Part shown: positions 9,898 through 45,667 of the stretch, in pieces
Layout: each line of letters begins with the position of its first letter
Position numbering within the stretch: the stretch's first letter is position 1
Source of the DNA: an uncultured Verrucomicrobia subdivision 3 bacterium
Lineage (GTDB): Bacteria; Verrucomicrobiota; Verrucomicrobiia; Limisphaerales; UBA11358
Assembly (NCBI GenBank): GCA_903875465.1
Contig: CAIQWB010000060.1
Span: 1 to 45,667, forward strand
Length of the DNA stretch: 45,667 bases
Reading direction: 5' to 3'
Position numbers and translations under genes: made by a program
Notes under the pieces: model-generated
Told to the model about the DNA's origin: nothing
The model's input: the letters and a program-made list of their open reading frames with translations, nothing else
The model's database searches: none

Positions 9898-11391
9898 GTG
9901 CTCATGCAAAGGGTCACCCTGATTTTCTGCGCCGCCAGCCTGTTGTGGTTGTCACCATTGCGGATTATGGCAGCTTCACTCGATCCGCTGGCGCGGTACC
10001 GCACCGACCAAATTCTCATCCAACCCCGGACCGGACTGGATGTCTCACTGCTCGCGCAGTTCCATGCCGCACGGGGAACCAAAGTAGTTCAGACCTTCGC
10101 GCACGCCGGCGGCTCCCAGGTCATCACCGTTCCCGCCGGCGAAACCGTGCCTGGTCTCGTAGCCAAATATCAGCAAAGTGGTTTGGTGGACTTTGCCGAG
10201 CCGGATTATCTGGTTCAGGCCGCGGCGACCCTCCCCAACGATCCCGCTTTCACGAATGGCACCTTGTGGGCGCTGAATAATTACGGCCAGAGCGGCGGCA
10301 CTCCGCGTGCGGACATGGATGCGGTGGACGCCTGGGATGTCCTGACCTCGGCCAGTAATATCGTCGTGGCCGTGCTGGACACTGGCATCCGGGCCACCCA
10401 CCAGGATTTGGCGGCCAACATGTGGGTGAACCCCCATGATGGTGGCAATGGGTTTAACGCCTTCACCGGCACCAACAATCCCGCGGATGACAGTGGTCAC
10501 GGCACCCTGGTTGCCGGGGTGCTGGGTGCCGTCGGCAATAATGGGATGGGCGTAACCGGGGTGGCGTGGCGAGTGCAAATGATGGCGGCCAAATGTCTGG
10601 ATAAAAATGGCAACGGCAGCGATGCCACGGTGATTTCCTGCCTGGAATACGCCCTGACCAACGGCGCCCGGATCATGAACCTGAGCCTGGACACCACGAC
10701 GGTCTCCCTCACCCTTTCCAACGCGCTGGTCGCGGCCCGGGCGGCCGGCATAATCATCGTGGCTTCCGCCGGCAACAATGCCGTGAATGTGGATGTCAGC
10801 CCGCATTATCCAGCCTGCTATGGAATCGACAACATCGTTTCCGTGGCCTATACCACGCGCACCGACGCGCTGGGCCAGTTTTCCGACTATGGCGCCACCA
10901 ATGTGACCCTGGCAGCGCCCGGCGACCAGATTTACTCCACCTTTGCCTCGGCGGATAATGGGTATTATCCGCCCTCGGGCCTGGCCATTAATATCGCTGG
11001 CACCTCCTTCGCCGCCGGCTATGTCAGCGGGGCGCTCGCCTTGATGCTGGCCAAATATCCGGCGGAGAACTACCAACAAATCATCCAGCGGTTGCTGAAC
11101 GCGACCGATCCCCTGCCCGCCCTCAAAGGCAAATGCCGCACCGGCGGCCGGCTCAACCTGCGCAAAGCCTTGAATCCAGACATCCGGCTGGCACCGTTGA
11201 CCGCTGACAACTCCGTAGTTCCTGTGCAATTGGCCACCGGTCCCAACCGGCTCTGTATCATTCAGGCATCCACGAACCTCACCAGTTGGACTCCGGTTTA
11301 TACCAACACCACCGGGACCAATGGGACGTTTATCTTCACCAATACCACAACTGCCGCCAAACTATTTTTCCGAGGGACCGCGACTCCTTGA
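9898..11391 (+). CDS. secreted subtilisin-like serine protease (S8 family)
   Basis: An exported protease of 497 residues: signal peptide (about 1-26), an inhibitor-like propeptide (to about 105), and a peptidase S8 domain with all catalytic residues, Asp161 (VLDTGI), His201 (DSGHGT) and Ser370 (GTSFAAG), plus the oxyanion Asn293 (ASAGNN). The propeptide with the FAEPDYL segment and the ALNNYGQSGG start of the mature domain are like fervidolysin-type subtilases. The last 70 residues contain CIIQASTNLTSWTPVY and end FFRGTATP, a small beta-rich module often found at the C-terminus of exported verrucomicrobial proteins (from family knowledge, role unknown). It is divergent from the antiporter gene and probably monocistronic. 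Confidence 0.93.
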   Translation: MLMQRVTLIFCAASLLWLSPLRIMAASLDPLARYRTDQILIQPRTGLDVSLLAQFHAARGTKVVQTFAHAGGSQVITVPAGETVPGLVAKYQQSGLVDFAEPDYLVQAAATLPNDPAFTNGTLWALNNYGQSGGTPRADMDAVDAWDVLTSASNIVVAVLDTGIRATHQDLAANMWVNPHDGGNGFNAFTGTNNPADDSGHGTLVAGVLGAVGNNGMGVTGVAWRVQMMAAKCLDKNGNGSDATVISCLEYALTNGARIMNLSLDTTTVSLTLSNALVAARAAGIIIVASAGNNAVNVDVSPHYPACYGIDNIVSVAYTTRTDALGQFSDYGATNVTLAAPGDQIYSTFASADNGYYPPSGLAINIAGTSFAAGYVSGALALMLAKYPAENYQQIIQRLLNATDPLPALKGKCRTGGRLNLRKALNPDIRLAPLTADNSVVPVQLATGPNRLCIIQASTNLTSWTPVYTNTTGTNGTFIFTNTTTAAKLFFRGTATP

Positions 11392-12395: not shown

Positions 12396-12668
12396 ATGGC
12401 ACAGGCAATCATGGATCCGGAAAAGGTGCGGCGGTTCGCCGAGGAACTGCAGCGCTTCAACAGCGACTTGGAAAACCGCATGATCCAGTTACAGGCCCGG
12501 CTGGGGGCGCTGGGGGATTCGTGGCAGGATCAGGAGCACGAAAAATTTTCCGAGGAGTTCAAGCAGGCCATGAAGGCCTTGAAACGGTTTGTGGATTCGT
12601 CCAAGGACCACACCCCGTATCTCCTGCGCAAGGCCCAGCGCATTGAGGATTACCTTAACCAGCGCTAA
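12396..12668 (+). CDS. WXG100-like helical hairpin protein (putative type VII-like substrate or partner)
   Basis: A 90-residue, fully helical, leaderless protein of WXG100 size. Two predicted amphipathic helices flank a turn with Trp43-Gln-Asp45 (DSWQDQEHEKF), where classical members have W-x-G. WXG100 proteins are secreted as helical-hairpin dimers by type VII systems driven by FtsK/SpoIIIE ATPases, and such an ATPase is encoded three genes downstream. The canonical C-terminal export motif YxxxD/E is not evident; the C-terminus is EDYLNQR. A clear Shine-Dalgarno (AGGA) precedes the ATG. The gene is two bases from the next, so translation is probably coupled. Function as secreted substrate versus structural partner is inference. 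Confidence 0.8.
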   Translation: MAQAIMDPEKVRRFAEELQRFNSDLENRMIQLQARLGALGDSWQDQEHEKFSEEFKQAMKALKRFVDSSKDHTPYLLRKAQRIEDYLNQR

Positions 12669-12670
12669 GG

Positions 12671-13219
12671 ATGGCCGATTCAGCCAAGGTCAGCTCGGTG
12701 GACGCGATTGAAGCCTTTCGCGCCAGCCTGGTGCTGTATTTGGCCAAAGCCAAGCCGGCCCTGGAGCAGGTGAGTGCGGAGGTGTCGCGCACCCGGGCCT
12801 GGGTGCAAACCTCCCAGCGCGCGCATTGGGAGCACGAGTTAAAACTGCGCCGGCGCAAACTGGAGGAAGCCAACGCGGAATTGTTCAACGCCCGGCTTTC
12901 CCAATTTCAAAATTCCACCCTGCTGCATACCATGGCGGTGCAAAAGGCCCAGCGGGCGGTGGCCGAGGCGGAGACCAAACTGGCCATGTTAAAAAAATGG
13001 AGCCGGGACATGGAAAGCCGCGCGGAACCCTTGCTCAAGCAGATCGAACAATTTCAAGGATATCTGGCCACCGAACTAGCCAAAGGGGCGGTTCACCTGG
13101 AGCAAATCGTCAAAACCCTGGATGCCTACACCGAGACCATGCCAACGGCAAGTGGCGGCGGCGCGGCGAGGGCGCCCGAAACCGCCCCGTCCGGCCCCAC
13201 CCCGGCAACCCTCCCATGA
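12671..13219 (+). CDS. coiled-coil protein of the WXG100/FtsK cassette
   Basis: A 182-residue cytoplasmic protein without signal peptide or membrane segment. Residues about 8-150 are almost continuously helical and charged, with heptad-like stretches (LRRRKLEEANAELFNARLS, then KAQRAVAEAETKLAMLKKW), and the last 30 residues are a low-complexity Gly/Ala/Pro/Thr tail. I do not recognise a named family. Its position between two WXG-like genes, two bases after the first and overlapping the second by ATGA, says that it belongs to the same complex, perhaps as a chaperone, adaptor or filament component for the ATPase; this is inference from context. Confidence 0.75.
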   Translation: MADSAKVSSVDAIEAFRASLVLYLAKAKPALEQVSAEVSRTRAWVQTSQRAHWEHELKLRRRKLEEANAELFNARLSQFQNSTLLHTMAVQKAQRAVAEAETKLAMLKKWSRDMESRAEPLLKQIEQFQGYLATELAKGAVHLEQIVKTLDAYTETMPTASGGGAARAPETAPSGPTPATLP

Positions 13220-13428
13220 ATTTACACGGCAACAAAGCCCAGCTCAGTGGCGCCACCAAGGAACTGCTGTTGCGCTGGTCGGAAACCAAAAATTACTGGC
13301 ACGATGGCAAAAGCCGGGAGTTCGAAGAGCGTTATATGCTCGAACTGATGGCGCGGGTGAACCAGGCCACGACCTTGATTGACAAATTGGAAGAGGTTTT
13401 GCAAAAAGTGCATAAGGATTGTGATTAG
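13216..13428 (+). CDS. second small W-x-D helical hairpin protein
   Basis: A 70-residue protein starting at the ATG that overlaps the previous stop codon (ATGA at 13216-13219), a typical translational-coupling arrangement. It is easily missed because the same frame is open far upstream. Its centre, YWHDGKSREFEERY, aligns with SWQDQEHEKFSEEF of the 90-residue WXG100-like protein, giving a shared W-x-D-x5-F-x-E-x-[FY] motif (Trp28, Asp30, Phe36, Tyr40 here). Both flanks are predicted helices. It therefore looks like a second, shorter WXG100-like partner, possibly forming a heterodimer as EsxA/EsxB do; that is inference. No signal peptide or transmembrane segment is present. Confidence 0.72.
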   Translation: MNLHGNKAQLSGATKELLLRWSETKNYWHDGKSREFEERYMLELMARVNQATTLIDKLEEVLQKVHKDCD

Positions 13429-13429
13429 A

Positions 13430-13447
13430 CCGGTGCTTAAGCACCGG
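13430..13447. repeat. perfect palindrome between the W-x-D gene and the ATPase gene
   Basis: CCGGTGCTTAAGCACCGG is an 18-bp perfect inverted repeat starting two bases after the upstream stop codon. In RNA it would form a 7-bp stem with a TTAA loop, 28 bases before the GTG start of the ATPase. It may tune mRNA stability or the ratio of small proteins to ATPase, or bind a protein; it lacks a T-tract. Confidence 0.6.
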
Positions 13448-13475
13448 CGAGGAAATATTCGGGAACAAAAATACT

Positions 13476-16400
13476 GTGAGCAACCAACCTGGAATCAACG
13501 ATTTGCTGGCGGATTTGGAGCGGCTGAAAAGCGTCCTCGCCGATTTCGCCCGGCGCGAAGAAAAACTGAACCAGACACACCGTGCGCGGACGAATGCGGA
13601 ATCCAGCACCCAGGAGGCGCGCCTGCGGGCCTTGGAGGAAAAATTGACCGCCAGCAGCACCCAGGCGGAACTGGATGAGGCCCAGGCGCTGCACCGCCAC
13701 CAAAGCCGGTGCCAGGCGCGCACCAACCGGATTTATGCCGCGCAAGCGACCCTGAAAAAACGACTCGAAAGTCAATTTGAGACGGCCGAGGCACTGTTGG
13801 GCAATTCCGTGCGGGAACAAACCGCGCTGACTGAACAACAGCGCGATCAGGCACTGGCCCAGGCACAAGCCGCCTATGCGGACTTTCAACAAAAACTGGC
13901 CACCAGCCAGGCGACCTTGGACCAATTGACGGCGCAGGCCGGGAAAGCCTTTGGCGCTTATGGGGCTTTCCGCCGGATGGTGCAACCCGAAAACAGCCTG
14001 GCCGGCATGGGGCCAGGGCCGGATGTGAACCGCGACGAGCCGGCCTTGCATGCGGCCATGGAGGCAACGGCCAGCGATACCGCGGGAAAATTGCAGCAGT
14101 TTGGCAGGTTGCCCGCGCCACTCTTGTTCCGCTTTGCCCCCCTGTGGTTGATTATTCTAGTCACGCTAATCTGGTCCCTGCTGGGGTGCTTCGCACTGCC
14201 GGCGGGCAAACCGACCCTGGCTTGGGATACCCTGCCCCCGGCCGTGACCGTGGGCGGGCTCGCCGTCCTGGGTGGACTACTATTCTTCTTCTGGTGGGGA
14301 CGCCGCTCCGCGCAACCAGCGGCCACCGCCATTGCGGGCCAACTGGCCAGCCTCCGGCAATTGCTGGCGGCGGCGGCGGCGCAGTCCGACCTCCGGCACC
14401 AAGCCGAGCAGCAACGTCTCCAGCAGGCCTGTGACCAGGCTATTCGCGCCCTGAATCAAGCGTGGAAAGAGCAGGTCAAAGAGCTGGCGGCCCAGCGGGC
14501 AAGCCTGCCCCGCAATGTGGATGAAAAAACGCGCCGCGCCGCGCGCCACAGTGAAGAGTTCCAACGGAACGGTGTGGAGCGCCGCAAACGCCGGTTTGCC
14601 GATAGTCTGGCGGAATTGCGGGCCGCGACCACCGCCCAAGCCCGCCAATGCACCGCCGCCCATCAAACGCTGATGGCTGACTTGAAGGAAAAACACGACA
14701 CCGCCTGGCAGGCGTTGCTAACCGAGTGGCAGGCTGCCATCGAGCCCCTCACCCAATCGCTCAGCGCCGTTGCCCAAACGGCCGACACACTGTTTCCCGC
14801 CTGGAATTCGCCGCGCTGGGAAACGTGGGAACAGCCGGCGACATTCGTGAATCTCGCGCCGGTGGGCCGCATGGAAGTAAGCCTGAAAACTTATGCCGAA
14901 GCCCTGCCCAAAGACCCGCGCCTGGCCTTCCCGGCCAGCCTGTCGGTGCCACTGCTGCTCAGTTTTCCGCGCCTGGGTTCCATCCTGCTGCAAACCGGGC
15001 TGACCGGCACCCCGGAGGCCATCGGAGCCATCAACAACCTGATTTTCCGCCTGCTCTCCACCACGCCACCGGGCAAATTAAGCTTCACCATTTTCGACCC
15101 CGTCGGCCTGGGGGAAAACTTTGCCGCCCTGATGCATCTGGCGGATTACGAGGAAAGCGCCATCAACAGCCGCATCTGGACGCAAACCGCGCAATTTGAG
15201 GAAAAGCTCGCAGAATTGAATGAGCACATGGAAAAAGTCATTCAGATGTATCTGCGCAATGACTATGCCACCATCGCCGAATACAACGCCGAGGCGGGCA
15301 CCATGGCTGAGAAATATCATTTCCTGGTCATTGCCTCGTTCCCGGTGAATTTCAGCGACACTGCGGCCCGGCGGTTGCGGAACATCGCCGCCAGTGGCGC
15401 CCGCTGCGGGGTGTATGTTTTCATTCAATGGGATCAGCGCACGCCGCTGCCCCCGGAAATTCTATTGGATGATTTAAAAAAAACCTGTGTCTGCCTGGCG
15501 CACACGCCGGATGGCTTCAAGTTCACGCATCAACCAGTGTATGGCATCCAAGTCCGGCTGGACGCCCCGCCCTCGGCGGATTTTGCGACCCAATTTCTGC
15601 ACCGGTCCGGACAGCAGAGCAAGAATTCGACCCGGGTGGAAGTGCCGTTCGCACAAGTCGCCCCGCCGGCAAACGCGCTCTGGCAGGAAAGCACCGTGGA
15701 GGAATTGCGCGTGCCGATTGGCCGTTCGGGAGCCACCAAATTGCAATACCTGGCCATTGGCAAAGGCACCCGGCAGCACGCGTTGATCGCGGGCAAAACG
15801 GGTTCCGGCAAATCCACCCTGTTCCACGTGATGATCACCAACCTGGCGCTTTGGTGCAGTCCTGAGCAGGTGGAGTTTTATCTGGTGGATTTCAAGAAGG
15901 GTGTGGAATTTAAATGCTACGGCGCCCGCCGCCTGCCGCATGCGCGCGTGGTGGCCATTGAAAGCGACCGGGCGTTTGGCCTGAGCGTGTTGCAACGGGT
16001 GGACGAAGAATTGCGCCGGCGCGGGGATTTGTTCCGCGCCTGCGGGGCGCAGGATCTGGCCGGCTACCATCGCGCTGGCGGGGGCGAGGCGTTGCCGCGC
16101 TCGCTGCTCTTGATTGACGAATTTCAGGAATTTTTCGTGGAGGAGGACCGCATTTCGCAAGGCGCCGCCGTGTTGCTGGATCGCATCATCCGGCAGGGCC
16201 GTGCGTTTGGCATTCATGTGGTGCTGGGTTCGCAGACGCTCGGCGGCGCGTATACGCTGGCCCGCGCCACCATCGGTCAAATGGTCATTCGCATCGCGCT
16301 CCAGTGCAACGAGACCGACGCCTACCTCATCATGGACCAGGACAACCCGGCCCCGCGCCTCCTGTCGCGGCCCGGTGAGGGCATCTATAACGACACGGCC

Positions 16401-17381
16401 GGCTCCATCGAGGGCAACAGCCCGTTTCAAGCGGTCTGGCTGGATGATCAAGTTCGCGACGATTACCTGGCCCGCGTCCGCGCGCGGGCAGATGAAACCC
16501 CCGGCAAATATCCCGGACCGATTGTATTTGAAGGCAGCGCCCCGGCGGACATTCGCGAAAACTTGCTGCTAGCCAGCCTGCTCAAAACCGTGCCGACCGC
16601 TCTCCCCGAGCAAGCCCGGGTCTGGCTGGGCGCGCCCAATTCCATCAAGGGCCCCACCGAGGCCGTGTTCAAACGGCAGGGCGGCAACCATCTGCTGCTT
16701 GTTGGCCAGAGCGAGGAACGCACCCTGAACAGCCTGACCATCGCCCTCGCCACCCTGGCGTTGCAATTTCCGCGTGGGCAGGCACGGTTCATCATCCTGG
16801 ACAGCACCCCGCCAGGCATTCCCCAGCGCGATTATTTTGCGCAGGTCATGCAGGCCGTGCCGCATGAAATCATCCAGGTCAACAATGCGAACCTCACCGA
16901 GGTGATGGCGGAATTATCCGCGGACTTGAAACAGCGTGGCACCGAAGCCGCCGGGGCCGGACCGGAAACGTTCGTACTGATCCAGGGCTTGCAGAACTTC
17001 AAGCGCTTGCGGCCGGAAGATGAATTCAGCTTTGGCGGCAGCGATGCCAGCGCCCCGCCCAATCCCGCCAATGTTTTGCTGGAGCTGATTACCGAAGGTC
17101 CGGCCCGTGGTTTTCACATGCTGGCTGCCATTGATACCTACAACAACGTCAACCGCTGCCTCGGCCGGAAAGCGCTGAGTGAATTTGAAATGCGCGTGCT
17201 CTTCCAGATGAGTGCCAGCGATTCCGCCAGCCTGATTGACGCGCCCGATGCCAGCAACCTCGGCTTCCACCGCGCCCTGCTGTACCTGGACCGTGAAGGC
17301 ACCATTGAAACCTTTCGACCCTATGCCCAACCGGACGGCGGCTGGGTGGCGGCGGTTCGGACCGCGTTAACCACGACCTAG
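13476..17381 (+). CDS. membrane FtsK/SpoIIIE-type ATPase, EccC/EssC-like
   Basis: A 1301-residue putative motor of a type VII-like system, starting at GTG 13476. Order of parts: N-terminal coiled coil (about 1-165), two transmembrane helices (about 219-240 and 255-277) with a short connecting loop, a second long coiled coil (about 290-440), a first degenerate ATPase-like module (about 480-700, FPRLGSILLQTG and FTIFDPVGLG), a canonical FtsK module with Walker A GKTGSGKS (773-780) and Walker B LLIDE (Asp881/Glu882), and a third degenerate module (about 1050-1290, GGNHLLLVGQSEERT in place of Walker A). Three tandem modules next to paired helices resemble EccC/EssC, but no FHA domain is seen and the coiled coils are unusual. 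Chromosomal FtsK is unlikely: there are only two membrane helices and no gamma winged-helix domain. Confidence 0.88.
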   Translation: MSNQPGINDLLADLERLKSVLADFARREEKLNQTHRARTNAESSTQEARLRALEEKLTASSTQAELDEAQALHRHQSRCQARTNRIYAAQATLKKRLESQFETAEALLGNSVREQTALTEQQRDQALAQAQAAYADFQQKLATSQATLDQLTAQAGKAFGAYGAFRRMVQPENSLAGMGPGPDVNRDEPALHAAMEATASDTAGKLQQFGRLPAPLLFRFAPLWLIILVTLIWSLLGCFALPAGKPTLAWDTLPPAVTVGGLAVLGGLLFFFWWGRRSAQPAATAIAGQLASLRQLLAAAAAQSDLRHQAEQQRLQQACDQAIRALNQAWKEQVKELAAQRASLPRNVDEKTRRAARHSEEFQRNGVERRKRRFADSLAELRAATTAQARQCTAAHQTLMADLKEKHDTAWQALLTEWQAAIEPLTQSLSAVAQTADTLFPAWNSPRWETWEQPATFVNLAPVGRMEVSLKTYAEALPKDPRLAFPASLSVPLLLSFPRLGSILLQTGLTGTPEAIGAINNLIFRLLSTTPPGKLSFTIFDPVGLGENFAALMHLADYEESAINSRIWTQTAQFEEKLAELNEHMEKVIQMYLRNDYATIAEYNAEAGTMAEKYHFLVIASFPVNFSDTAARRLRNIAASGARCGVYVFIQWDQRTPLPPEILLDDLKKTCVCLAHTPDGFKFTHQPVYGIQVRLDAPPSADFATQFLHRSGQQSKNSTRVEVPFAQVAPPANALWQESTVEELRVPIGRSGATKLQYLAIGKGTRQHALIAGKTGSGKSTLFHVMITNLALWCSPEQVEFYLVDFKKGVEFKCYGARRLPHARVVAIESDRAFGLSVLQRVDEELRRRGDLFRACGAQDLAGYHRAGGGEALPRSLLLIDEFQEFFVEEDRISQGAAVLLDRIIRQGRAFGIHVVLGSQTLGGAYTLARATIGQMVIRIALQCNETDAYLIMDQDNPAPRLLSRPGEGIYNDTAGSIEGNSPFQAVWLDDQVRDDYLARVRARADETPGKYPGPIVFEGSAPADIRENLLLASLLKTVPTALPEQARVWLGAPNSIKGPTEAVFKRQGGNHLLLVGQSEERTLNSLTIALATLALQFPRGQARFIILDSTPPGIPQRDYFAQVMQAVPHEIIQVNNANLTEVMAELSADLKQRGTEAAGAGPETFVLIQGLQNFKRLRPEDEFSFGGSDASAPPNPANVLLELITEGPARGFHMLAAIDTYNNVNRCLGRKALSEFEMRVLFQMSASDSASLIDAPDASNLGFHRALLYLDREGTIETFRPYAQPDGGWVAAVRTALTTT

Positions 17382-44960: not shown

Positions 44961-45296
44961 TTAGGATTCGATGCCCAGCAGTTCGACCTCAAAAATCAGG
45001 GTGGAATTCGGCGGGATGGCCCCGGGATAACCGGCCCGGCCATAGGCCAGTTCTGGGGGAATGGTGAGTTTCACCTTGTCGCCCACCACCATCGTGGCCA
45101 CGCCCGCATCCCAACCCGCGATCACCTGGCCCAGCCCGAGGGCGAAGGAGAACGGTTCCTTGCGGTCCACCGAACTGTCGAATTTGCCACCGTCCGTGAA
45201 CCAGCCGGTGTAATGAACGGACACGACCTGGCCCTTTTTGGGGGCCTTGCCGGTGCCGGTGACGAGCTTCTCAATTTGTAATGCGTTGGTTGCCAT
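44961..45296 (-). CDS. FKBP-type peptidyl-prolyl cis-trans isomerase
   Basis: A 111-residue single-domain FKBP that speeds prolyl isomerisation in protein folding. The conserved pattern is complete: [54 protein letters not shown] and [18 protein letters not shown]. No signal peptide is present, so it is probably cytoplasmic. The frame stays open upstream to 45602 only because CRISPR repeat plus 30-bp spacer is 66 bp, a multiple of three; the ATG at 45296 gives the normal FKBP length and N-terminus ([11 protein letters not shown]). It appears to be the first gene of the five-gene minus-strand group. Confidence 0.93.
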
Positions 45297-45363
45297 GCCG
45301 CAGTGTCGCCGATTCCAGGGGTGGGGGTCAAGTTTTGGGCGGGGCTGGGGGCGGGGAAAAAGG

Positions 45364-45667
45364 CTTGGGGCTTGATTCCAATTACGGCGGGTGCAAACTC
45401 CTATGCGACGGAGGATGTAGTTACCACTGCTTTGCCTTGATTCCAAATACGGGGGGTGCAAACTTTTAATCAAGCCCTGGTGGTGGAAACGATTGCTTTG
45501 CCTTGATTCCAAAAACGGGGGGTGCAAACTTCCTGGTGGGTCGGCTCCAACCAAATAACTGCTTTGCCTTGATTCCAAATACGGGGGGTGCAAACTCGTC
45601 ACCGAAAGTGGAATGCTTTATGTATGGCTTTGCCTTGATTCCAAATACGGGGGGTGCAAACTGGTTA
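45364..45667 (-). CRISPR. CRISPR array, distal end, cut by the window edge
   Basis: Five repeats of 36 bp: 45364-45399 (degenerate), 45429-45464, 45495-45530 (one mismatch), 45561-45596 and 45627-45662. On the plus strand they begin GCTTTGCCTTG and end GGGGTGCAAACT. The four spacers are 29, 30, 30 and 30 bp and unlike one another; a fifth begins at 45663. Read on the minus strand the repeat begins AGTTTGCACC and the leftmost copy is degenerate at its 3' end, as terminal repeats usually are, so the leader and any cas genes should lie to the right, outside the window. A 36-bp repeat with 30-bp spacers is most typical of type II systems (inference). No cas gene or tracrRNA is visible here. Confidence 0.95.

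What the first reader, a model, noticed from the sequence alone, without database searches (positions are those of the whole stretch)
12396..17381. Type VII-like cassette: two W-x-D helical hairpins, a coiled-coil protein and a giant FtsK/SpoIIIE ATPase
Seen directly: four same-strand genes with 2-bp, ATGA and 47-bp junctions; the first and third encode short leaderless helical proteins with a central W-x-D, and the fourth a two-helix membrane ATPase with one intact and two degenerate FtsK-like modules. Known: WXG100 proteins plus an EccC/EssC-type ATPase are the hallmark pair of type VII secretion in Gram-positive bacteria. Inference: this is a minimal, largely undescribed type VII-like machine in a bacterium that also encodes Kdo transferase and therefore has LPS. 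No EccB, EccD, EccE, EsaA, YukD or mycosin-like partner is present, so the set may instead form a protein- or DNA-moving complex with another purpose.
Basis: partly seen in the sequence, partly recalled or inferred. Interest (0 to 1): 0.82.

Follow-up and report, generated by a model that had tools for sequence, protein, structure and literature searches.

The report
Toxin-free type VII-like cassette in Verrucomicrobiota
Four neighbouring genes in a bacterium of the Verrucomicrobiota, a group with an outer membrane, encode a compact relative of the type VII protein-export machine of Gram-positive bacteria, kept as one unit across many related species but without the toxins that some plasmid cousins carry; what it moves is unknown.

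Summary
Four same-strand genes encode a 90-aa WXG100 protein (over the Pfam cut-off), a 182-aa long helical hairpin, a 70-aa WXG100-like protein with W-x-D, and a 1301-aa EccC-type ATPase: coiled coil, two membrane segments, EccC-like "DUF" domain, one catalytic FtsK module, degenerate module like EccC/EssC D3. The order WXG100-hairpin-small-ATPase is kept in 67 of 80 loci (9 contig-cut, 4 incomplete) and 39 of 41 relatives' regions; no other conserved neighbour was found. WXG100 occurs in 95 of 167 genomes of the order, nearly always once.

It is not new in kind. A 2012 table footnote names solo-WXG plus three-module ATPases with only the middle one active, Verrucomicrobia included, as "mobile versions of T7SS"; CoCoNuT/TerY-P operons and Helicobacter carry relatives, some with toxin-like cargo. 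What I did not find in print is the stand-alone, membrane-anchored, toxin-free, chromosomal verrucomicrobial form. Inheritance is mixed: broadly lineage-following, with conflicts. YukC and YukD were not found in the window's genome; secretion is untested. Best reading: a minimal T7SS-like inner-membrane translocase for a WXG100/hairpin complex (confidence 0.5). New variant of a known kind.

The parts
12396..12668 (+). WXG100 protein (W-x-D variant), 90 aa
   Evidence: PF06013 45 bits, cut-off 27.3; best PDB sequence match H. pylori HP0062 3fx7, E 2.1e-5; 83 distinct relatives, window included, each 90 aa when the start codon nearest to 90 aa is taken, with M1, W43, D45 and Y86 invariant
12671..13219 (+). 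long helical-hairpin protein, 182 aa, with a variable, Pro/Ala-rich tail; candidate substrate or adaptor
   Evidence: AlphaFold2 pLDDT 89.2, helices 2-77 and 80-156, then coil of low confidence; no family at a meaningful score; 87 distinct sequences of 165-208 aa when starts nearest to 178 aa are taken, and the gene fills the space between genes 1 and 3 in most loci, so there is no room for a fused toxin domain
13216..13428 (+). small WXG100-like protein, 70 aa, with invariant W21, W28, D30, F36 and C69 (second-last residue in the window's protein)
   Evidence: 87 distinct sequences, 68-73 aa with starts nearest to 70 aa, all with Cys; profile match to WXG100, hhalign probability 79%, E 1.5e-5
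13476..17381 (+). EccC/EssC-lineage ATPase, 1301 aa: coiled-coil-like 1-215, two membrane segments, coiled-coil-like to about 430, DUF-like domain 432-717, active motor about 720-1003, D3-like degenerate module about 1017-1287
   Evidence: Pfam/NCBIfam; AlphaFold2 of 432-1301 pLDDT 80.6; VIA-align and Foldseek matches to EccC/EssC; one Walker A in 72 of 74 proteins. 'Coiled-coil-like' is my reading of the sequence, not a prediction

Best explanation
A compact, stand-alone type VII-like translocase of the inner membrane. Shown or well supported: the ATPase is of the EccC/EssC lineage (EccC-like DUF domain, one catalytic FtsK motor, a C-terminal module like EccC/EssC D3), has two predicted membrane segments, and is encoded with a WXG100 protein, a second WXG100-like protein and a long helical-hairpin protein as one conserved unit. 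Inferred: the ATPase forms a hexamer at the membrane, the D3-like module receives the WXG100 tail as EccC ATPase3 receives EsxB's (recalled), the 70-aa protein acts as WXG100 partner, the hairpin protein is the co-exported cargo or adaptor (in the Helicobacter plasmid relative the genes between WXG100 and ATPase include a toxin-like and an immunity-like gene), and the single motor drives this complex across the inner membrane into the periplasm. With no toxin or immunity gene in the unit and no second WXG100 or LXG match in the window's genome, the export probably serves the producing cell's own envelope or physiology rather than antagonism. About 0.9 for membership in the WXG100/EccC superfamily; about 0.5 for protein export as the job.
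For: WXG100 over Pfam cut-off. ATPase structure: residues 432-717 match the EccC5 DUF domain (8rin, Z 15.4, rmsd 3.9, 226 aligned), 720-1003 match EccCb1 D2 (9jv8, Z 23.3), and FtsK motors cover the same part (6t8b, Z 25.6, 258 aligned); 1017-1287 match EccC/EssC C-terminal modules (6jd5 Z 20.2; 6tv1 EssC D3 Z 17.4); the last two modules together match EccC ATPases 2-3 solved with a signal peptide (4n1a, Z 24.0, 486 aligned, rmsd 8.2); Foldseek's best is EccC 4nh0, E 5.6e-31. Membrane segments: two in 62 of 74 proteins, three in 7, one in 2, none in 3 at a hydropathy threshold of 1.4; at 1.6 two in 60, one in 11, none in 3. Operon order kept, with a 4-bp overlap of genes 2 and 3 in 51 of 67. 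The two most conserved parts are the motor (mean pairwise identity 0.81) and the WXG100 (0.73), against 0.59 and 0.53 for the DUF and D3-like modules, 0.43 small, 0.41 hairpin, about 0.24 coiled coil and membrane region (66 loci), which fits a direct motor/WXG100 dependence. Of 349 plasmid records with a match I examined four of the best; all four loci encode a WXG100 matched by the verrucomicrobial profile (E 1.6e-25 to 1.4e-8 among 26 proteins), and the Helicobacter one places an annotated HNH endonuclease and an SMI1/KNR4 protein between WXG100 and ATPase genes.
Against: No secretion data. No YxxxD/E tail: 0 of 83 WXG100 and 0 of 87 small proteins. YukC/EssB 0 of 59 genomes and YukD 1 of 59, on another contig than that genome's cassette. 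The CoCoNuT relatives lack membrane domains (PMC11090510), and the five plasmid or TerY-P-type ATPases I examined show no comparable pair of segments, so the superfamily need not be an exporter. Homology of the hairpin protein to plasmid toxin leaders was not found (hhalign probability 1.6%, E 0.031; control 0.2%, E 0.31). The module labels are not exclusive: YukB (9qks, DUF part) aligns with the last module instead of the first (Z 15.8), and HerA-type ATPases reach Z about 14. Exceptions to the unit: L020, L043, L050, L080 and G011, an intact WXG100 gene without the other three in 4.2 kb downstream; L079's ATPase is split over two frames and G032 has about 2.2 kb between the small and ATPase genes.
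Confidence: 0.5

Rival explanations
1. A cytoplasmic-face conflict or stress device: the WXG100 and hairpin proteins are regulatory subunits of the ATPase in an anti-phage or stress response, as one may suspect from the TerY-P/CoCoNuT-linked relatives, and nothing is exported.
For: Relatives with the same three-module ATPase sit in TerY-P/CoCoNuT operons (PMC11090510; PMC4978471); Caballeronia and a verrucomicrobial genome, G269, have VWA/WXG100/coiled-coil-nuclease-like/FtsK/CARF/VWA/PP2C loci (the G269 names are my reading of the sequence). Patchy presence and tree conflicts suit a defence trait.
Against: The window cassette has no nuclease, VWA, kinase or phosphatase gene and none is conserved beside it. 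It has membrane segments that the TerY-P-type lacks. G269 carries both types as separate loci. PADLOC models match only the P-loop region: SspH 80.3 bits (767-920), mad8 68.5 bits (744-948).
Confidence: 0.22
2. A DNA-moving pump: the motor is an FtsK/TcpA-type DNA translocase with helical accessory proteins.
For: The highest Z is with FtsK bound to DNA (6t8b, 25.6); TcpA of pCW3 reaches about 22.
Against: The EccC-like DUF domain and D3-like module place it in the T7 lineage. A separate FtsK is in the genome (C14, 229 bits). WXG100 is the usual partner, and no relaxase or mating gene is a conserved neighbour.
Confidence: 0.1
3. A full type VII secretion system whose other membrane parts (EccB/EccD/EccE or EssA/EssB/EsaA equivalents) lie elsewhere in the genome.
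For: T7SSc-j lack T7SSa/b parts and use other ones (PMC11217815, passages); a YukD-like gene exists in relative G022.
Against: YukC 0 of 59 and no YukD in the window's genome, with the B. subtilis control ringing. No other conserved neighbour. The EccB test was inconclusive; EccE, EssA and EsaA were not searched.
Confidence: 0.13
4. A decaying remnant of a mobile, toxin-carrying T7-like element, no longer functional.
For: Zhang et al. 2012 call such sets 'mobile versions of T7SS'; no toxin is present here; a lone WXG100 gene occurs (G011); one ATPase is split (L079); only 4 of 21 tree splits are shared with RpoB+SecA.
Against: 73 of 80 loci have an ATPase frame of 1200 aa or more (6 others are contig-cut, L079 is split), and in these plus the window the P-loop GKTGSGKS is invariant (74 of 74); WXG100 keeps 0.73 mean identity, which is purifying selection, not decay.
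Confidence: 0.05

Closest known systems
Solo-WXG plus YueA-like three-module ATPase sets (Zhang et al. 2012, PMC3482391, Table 1 footnote 6; passages read)
   Same: WXG protein with an ATPase of three FtsK/HerA modules, only the middle one active; Verrucomicrobia named
   Different: The passages read do not mention the hairpin and 70-aa genes, membrane helices or distribution; called 'mobile', whereas here it sits in large single-contig genomes in several species (G309, G312, G377, G567, G585) and broadly follows lineage
FtsK/EssC-like modules of Type III-A CoCoNuT/TerY-P operons (Bell et al. 2024, PMC11090510; passages read)
   Same: three-module ATPase with active centre and N-terminal coiled coil, two WXG100-like proteins, a coiled-coil protein
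   [quoted passage not shown] none of that here
H. pylori HP0062/HP0066 locus and Helicobacter plasmid pNHP190012_1
   Same: WXG100 with W-x-D bend (HP0062 WRD, PMC3397514) and FtsK/SpoIIIE partner in a Gram-negative; HP0062 is the best PDB sequence match of the window's WXG100
   Different: the Helicobacter plasmid set carries an HNH endonuclease gene and an SMI1/KNR4 gene; its ATPase (823 aa) shows only marginal hydrophobic stretches and is 24% identical over the three modules
T7SSa EccC (ESX) and T7SSb EssC/YukB
   Same: membrane-anchored ATPase with DUF domain, FtsK motor and D3-like end module; WXG100 partner
   Different: three modules instead of DUF plus three ATPase modules; coiled-coil-like N-terminus in place of EssC's FHA domains; no YukC/EssB or YukD found in the window's genome; no YxxxD/E tail
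T7SSc-T7SSj (Garrett et al. 2024, PMC11217815; passages read)
   Same: TsxA (WXG100) plus TsxC (ATPase) as the core
   Different: described in Actinomycetota and Bacillota, each ATPase with four predicted NTPase domains, and most with TsxB (YukD-like)

Membership tests
WXG100 superfamily (12396-12668) | match to PF06013 over the curated cut-off, about 100 aa, leaderless, W in the bend | tested here: met
   45 bits against 27.3; 90 aa, W43 invariant in 83 of 83 distinct sequences; D instead of G two residues on; below NCBIfam TIGR03930's cut-off (30.5 against 44.85)
WXG100 superfamily (13216-13428) | match to a WXG100 model | tested here: inconclusive
   no Pfam match; profile-profile probability 79%, E 1.5e-5 over 36 columns; not folded
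EccC/EssC ATPases | two N-terminal membrane segments, DUF domain, FtsK-type motor modules, D3-type end module | tested here: met
   segments; modules; below NCBIfam equivalog cut-offs (TIGR03924 105.9 against 509.15), so not EccC or EssC proper
EccC/EssC ATPases | four C-terminal NTPase-like domains (per PMC11217815) | tested here: not met
   three modules only in the model of 432-1301
Type VII secretion system | WXG100 gene beside an EccC/EssC-type ATPase gene | tested here: met
   67 of 80 loci, 9 contig-cut, 4 incomplete; 39 of 41 relatives' regions
T7SSb | YukC/EssB partner | tested here: not met
   0 of 59 genomes; B. subtilis control rings
T7SSb | YukD/EsaB partner | tested here: not met
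   no match in own genome; 1 of 59, on another contig than its cassette
T7SSa (ESX) | EccB partner | tested here: inconclusive
   0 of 59, but the control genomes also gave nothing
T7SSa (ESX) | C-terminal YxxxD/E signal on the Esx partner (motif recalled) | tested here: not met
   0 of 83 WXG100, 0 of 87 small proteins in their last 30 residues
Type VII secretion system | export of the WXG100 protein depends on the ATPase | not testable with these tools
   needs a bench test
CoCoNuT/TerY-P-linked FtsK module | ATPase without membrane helices, beside VWA, CARF, PP2C/kinase and a coiled-coil nuclease gene | tested here: not met
   two membrane segments; no such conserved neighbours
FtsK/TcpA DNA translocases | DNA translocation | not testable with these tools
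   the motor fold is shared; a separate FtsK is present

The most novel reading that the evidence does not exclude
An outer-membrane phylum has its own native, domesticated type VII-like exporter, reduced to four genes, toxin-free, membrane-anchored and under strong purifying selection, that moves a WXG100/hairpin complex into the periplasm for a physiological rather than antagonistic purpose; with one motor module it would be the simplest T7-type translocase I know of.
Probability: 0.3. Interest if true: 0.78.

Novelty: new variant of a known kind. Interest (0 to 1): 0.52.

Why it matters
Type VII secretion is usually described as a Gram-positive and mycobacterial trait with many membrane parts. 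A four-gene set with one motor in LPS-type bacteria, some of them in culture, would let one ask directly what the minimal WXG100/EccC pair does, and whether T7 arose as, or was tamed into, a toxin-free translocase. It also adds to two pictures in print: that such sets outside Gram-positives are mobile elements, and that their ATPases lack membrane anchors.

Tried and rejected
Toxin in the hairpin slot of the verrucomicrobial loci: none seen; gene 2 fills the space between genes 1 and 3 in most loci. Inspecting odd loci: L036 has two short genes between genes 2 and 3 that look like a toxin-antitoxin insertion (my reading of the sequence), not cargo; L020 and L080 lack the WXG100 gene and L043 lacks WXG100 and hairpin; L050 has a cytochrome-c-like gene, not the small gene, upstream of its ATPase, where only 668 bp are held.

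Hairpin protein as a homologue of plasmid toxin leaders: not shown, though the only aligned stretch is the same 'LxxYxxxxP' end. Its Foldseek matches are generic long hairpins, none at E <= 0.001.

Conserved extra partner genes: apart from the cassette's own genes and their antisense shadows, no cluster of open frames (90 aa or more) reached more than 10 of the 80 loci; 3 kb or more downstream was available in 57 and 4.5 kb or more upstream in 54. The subtilisin-like protease upstream (9898-11391; best NCBIfam model mycosin, 144.8 bits, cut-off 278.75) had no match among the open frames of L002-L110, so it is not taken as a mycosin partner.

Strict vertical inheritance: not supported as such. 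Distances of ATPase and RpoB+SecA trees correlate (r 0.80; best of 2000 permutations 0.50) but only 4 of 21 splits are shared (RpoB and SecA share 12 of 21), with 37 strongly supported conflicting pairs (24 genomes; RpoB against SecA 3). Searches gave lower correlations because the marker proteins of G048 were taken from the wrong frame; one search replaces them.

Universality: rejected. WXG100 in 23 of 387 phylum genomes, two of them only at E 2.4e-4 and 9.1e-4, and the small protein in 70 of 385 class genomes; both were single-sequence queries, so lower bounds.

Prior-art searches were nine in one open-access library; Anantharaman 2012 and Sutcliffe 2011 are not held, so their content is known to me only through citing papers or recall.

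Full report
What is there. Four + strand genes lie at 12396-12668, 12671-13219, 13216-13428 and 13476-17381, with a 2-bp gap, an ATGA overlap and a 47-bp gap. Gene 1 is a WXG100 protein over Pfam's cut-off (45 bits against 27.3); its best PDB sequence match is H. pylori HP0062 (3fx7, E 2.1e-5), ahead of EsxA/EsxB structures. Genes 2 and 3 have no family at a meaningful score. Gene 4 is FtsK_SpoIIIE (107.5 bits) and closest in sequence to EccC structures.

Conservation of the unit. By record title 79 of the 80 read as Verrucomicrobiota or as an unnamed 'bacterium'; one is titled Bacteroidetes. Order and strand WXG100-hairpin-small-ATPase hold in 67 of 80. Of the other 13, 9 are cut by contig ends and 4 are incomplete: L020 and L080 lack the WXG100 gene, L043 lacks WXG100 and hairpin, L050 has none of the three in the 668 bp held upstream. 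Among the 67, L079's ATPase is split over two frames, and gene 3 overlaps gene 2 by 4 bp in 51. Of the 59 genomes, 42 have one WXG100 match each, the window's own included; regions were fetched from the other 41, and 39 show the same order, one is contig-cut and one (G011) has the WXG100 gene alone; in G032 about 2.2 kb separate the small and ATPase genes. The two sets share some genomes. No other open frame is a conserved neighbour: beyond the cassette and its antisense shadows no cluster reaches more than 10 of 80 loci.

The parts. WXG100: 83 distinct sequences (window included), each 90 aa when the start nearest to that length is taken, with M1, W43, D45 and Y86 invariant and YL-x-Q-[RHK] as the ten commonest ends. 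Small protein: 87 distinct sequences, with W21, W28, D30, F36 and C69 invariant; profile comparison aligns its W28-x-D30 with W43-x-D45 of WXG100 (probability 79%, E 1.5e-5). Hairpin protein: predicted as two helices, 2-77 and 80-156, mean pLDDT 89.2, then a low-confidence tail. Across 66 loci mean pairwise identity is 0.81 for the motor module, 0.73 WXG100, 0.59 DUF, 0.53 D3-like, 0.43 small, 0.41 hairpin, and 0.23-0.26 for the coiled-coil and membrane region: motor and WXG100 are conserved together.

The ATPase. Hydropathy gives two membrane segments in the window protein (223-241, 256-274). Over the window and the 73 of 80 loci with a frame of 1200 aa or more (6 others are contig-cut, L079 is split), a threshold of 1.4 gives two segments in 62, three in 7, one in 2 and none in 3 of 74. 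GKTGSGKS at 773-780 is invariant in 74 of 74 and is the only Walker A in 72. The model of residues 432-1301 (pLDDT 80.6, pTM 0.63) divides into an EccC-like DUF domain (8rin, Z 15.4), an active motor (FtsK 6t8b Z 25.6; EccCb1 D2 9jv8 Z 23.3) and a last module like EccC/EssC D3 (6jd5 Z 20.2; 6tv1 Z 17.4); motor and last module together align with EccC ATPases 2-3 solved with a signal peptide (4n1a, Z 24.0, rmsd 8.2). One row goes the other way: YukB (9qks) aligns its DUF part with the last module (Z 15.8), and HerA ATPases reach Z about 14, as related folds do. Foldseek ranks EccC 4nh0 first (E 5.6e-31). So the best description is DUF-motor-D3-like: EccC architecture less one ATPase module. That the D3-like module receives the WXG100 tail is inference from EccC.

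What is missing. In 59 genomes YukC/EssB has no match and YukD one (G022, another contig than its cassette), with B. subtilis ringing as control. EccB gave none, but neither did the controls, so nothing follows. EccE, EssA and EsaA were not searched. LXG has no match over its cut-off in 59 (one below it, G054), control ringing. The window's genome has one WXG100 match and a separate FtsK (229 bits), plus a 28-bit FtsK match elsewhere. The YxxxD/E tail is absent in 83 WXG100 and 87 small proteins.

Distribution and inheritance. WXG100 matches occur in 95 of 167 genomes of the order at least 90% complete (51 of 77 genera; one match each except G049, whose second is weak), in 42 of 59 near relatives, in 23 of 387 of the phylum sample; the small protein in 70 of 385 of the class sample (43 of 174 genera). 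Several carriers are single-contig genomes of megabase size (G309, G312, G377; G567, G585), so the locus is most likely chromosomal there. ATPase distances follow RpoB+SecA (r 0.80, permutation maximum 0.50), yet only 4 of 21 splits agree, against 12 of 21 between RpoB and SecA, with 37 strong conflicts against 3 (24 genomes). Mixed descent: lineage-following overall, with exchange among relatives or noise.

Relatives elsewhere. tblastn found 349 plasmid records with a match, none covering 80% of the query, and 137 phage-collection records, likewise. I examined four of the best plasmid ones, from Deinococcus, Rhodococcus, Caballeronia and Helicobacter, 27-31% identical in the search and 24-30% over the three modules in my alignment. 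Each of these four loci has a WXG100 found by the verrucomicrobial profile. Helicobacter: WXG100, annotated HNH endonuclease, SMI1/KNR4, 77 aa, FtsK. Caballeronia: VWA, WXG100, 436 aa, 113 aa, 76 aa, FtsK, CARF, VWA, PP2C, kinase. A verrucomicrobial genome, G269, has both the stand-alone four-gene unit in the same order and a Caballeronia-like locus; the FtsK of the latter and that of Caballeronia are 50% identical and group apart from the stand-alone verrucomicrobial ones.

What is in print. Zhang et al. 2012 (PMC3482391, passages read) state in a table footnote that lineages including verrucomicrobia have solo WXG domains with a distinct three-module ATPase, only the middle one active, apparently mobile versions of T7SS. 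Bell et al. 2024 (PMC11090510, passages) describe the same ATPase type in CoCoNuT operons with an N-terminal coiled coil but no transmembrane domains, two WXG100 proteins and a coiled-coil nuclease fusion, and suggest that some of these factors are secreted. PMC4978471 (passages) calls WxG plus FtsK in H. [quoted passage not shown] PMC3397514 (passages) gives HP0062 as a WRD hairpin. Garrett et al. 2024 (PMC11217815, passages) describe T7SSc-j in Actinomycetota and Bacillota. Poulsen et al. 2014 (PMC3935865, passages) found WXG100 almost only in Actinobacteria and Firmicutes, with a few in Chloroflexi. Nine searches of this library returned no paper that I recognised as describing the four-gene verrucomicrobial unit; only the listings and the passages cited were seen.

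Verdict. It belongs to the WXG100/EccC superfamily, does not meet the tests for T7SSb and only part of those for T7SSa, and differs from the known relatives by membrane anchoring, lack of toxin and neighbours, and chromosomal, class-wide but patchy presence. Export of a WXG100/hairpin complex is the likeliest job, at about even odds; defence is the main rival.

Noticed in passing
L227 (G269:C1:1716000-1730000): A verrucomicrobial genome carries a TerY-P/CoCoNuT-like locus (VWA, WXG100, coiled coil with a C-terminal nuclease-like part, small gene, FtsK without membrane segments, CARF-like gene, VWA, PP2C-like gene; names are my reading) besides its own stand-alone four-gene unit (L231).
   Followed up: partly
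L144 (G011:C90:4235-4504, - strand): Intact WXG100 gene (79% identical to the window's) with no hairpin, small or ATPase gene in 4.2 kb downstream; next to it an SMP-30/gluconolactonase-like gene.
   Followed up: partly
window 9898-11391 +: Subtilisin-like protease 1 kb upstream of the cassette; best NCBIfam model is T7SS mycosin, but below its cut-off (144.8 against 278.75) and with no match in the other loci held then.
   Followed up: yes
L226 (G022:C90:4928-5317): YukD (ubiquitin-like) gene over its Pfam cut-off beside a short, perhaps PH-like gene and a membrane protein with a Cys-rich N-terminal part, on another contig than that genome's WXG100 cassette.
   Followed up: no
window 44961-45602 -: Open frame made of a repeated 'SLHPP(Y/F)LESRQS' unit, probably a DNA repeat array rather than a gene.
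   Followed up: no
L036 3199-3800: Two short genes that look like a toxin-antitoxin pair inserted between the hairpin and small genes.
   Followed up: no
L050 1-668: A c-type-cytochrome-like gene lies where the small gene would be expected upstream of this ATPase.
   Followed up: partly
H31, phage-collection record MT836827.1 2700-5606: A human-faecal 'Bacteriophage sp.' record encodes a 27%-identical match over residues 522-1173 of the ATPase, spanning its modules.
   Followed up: no
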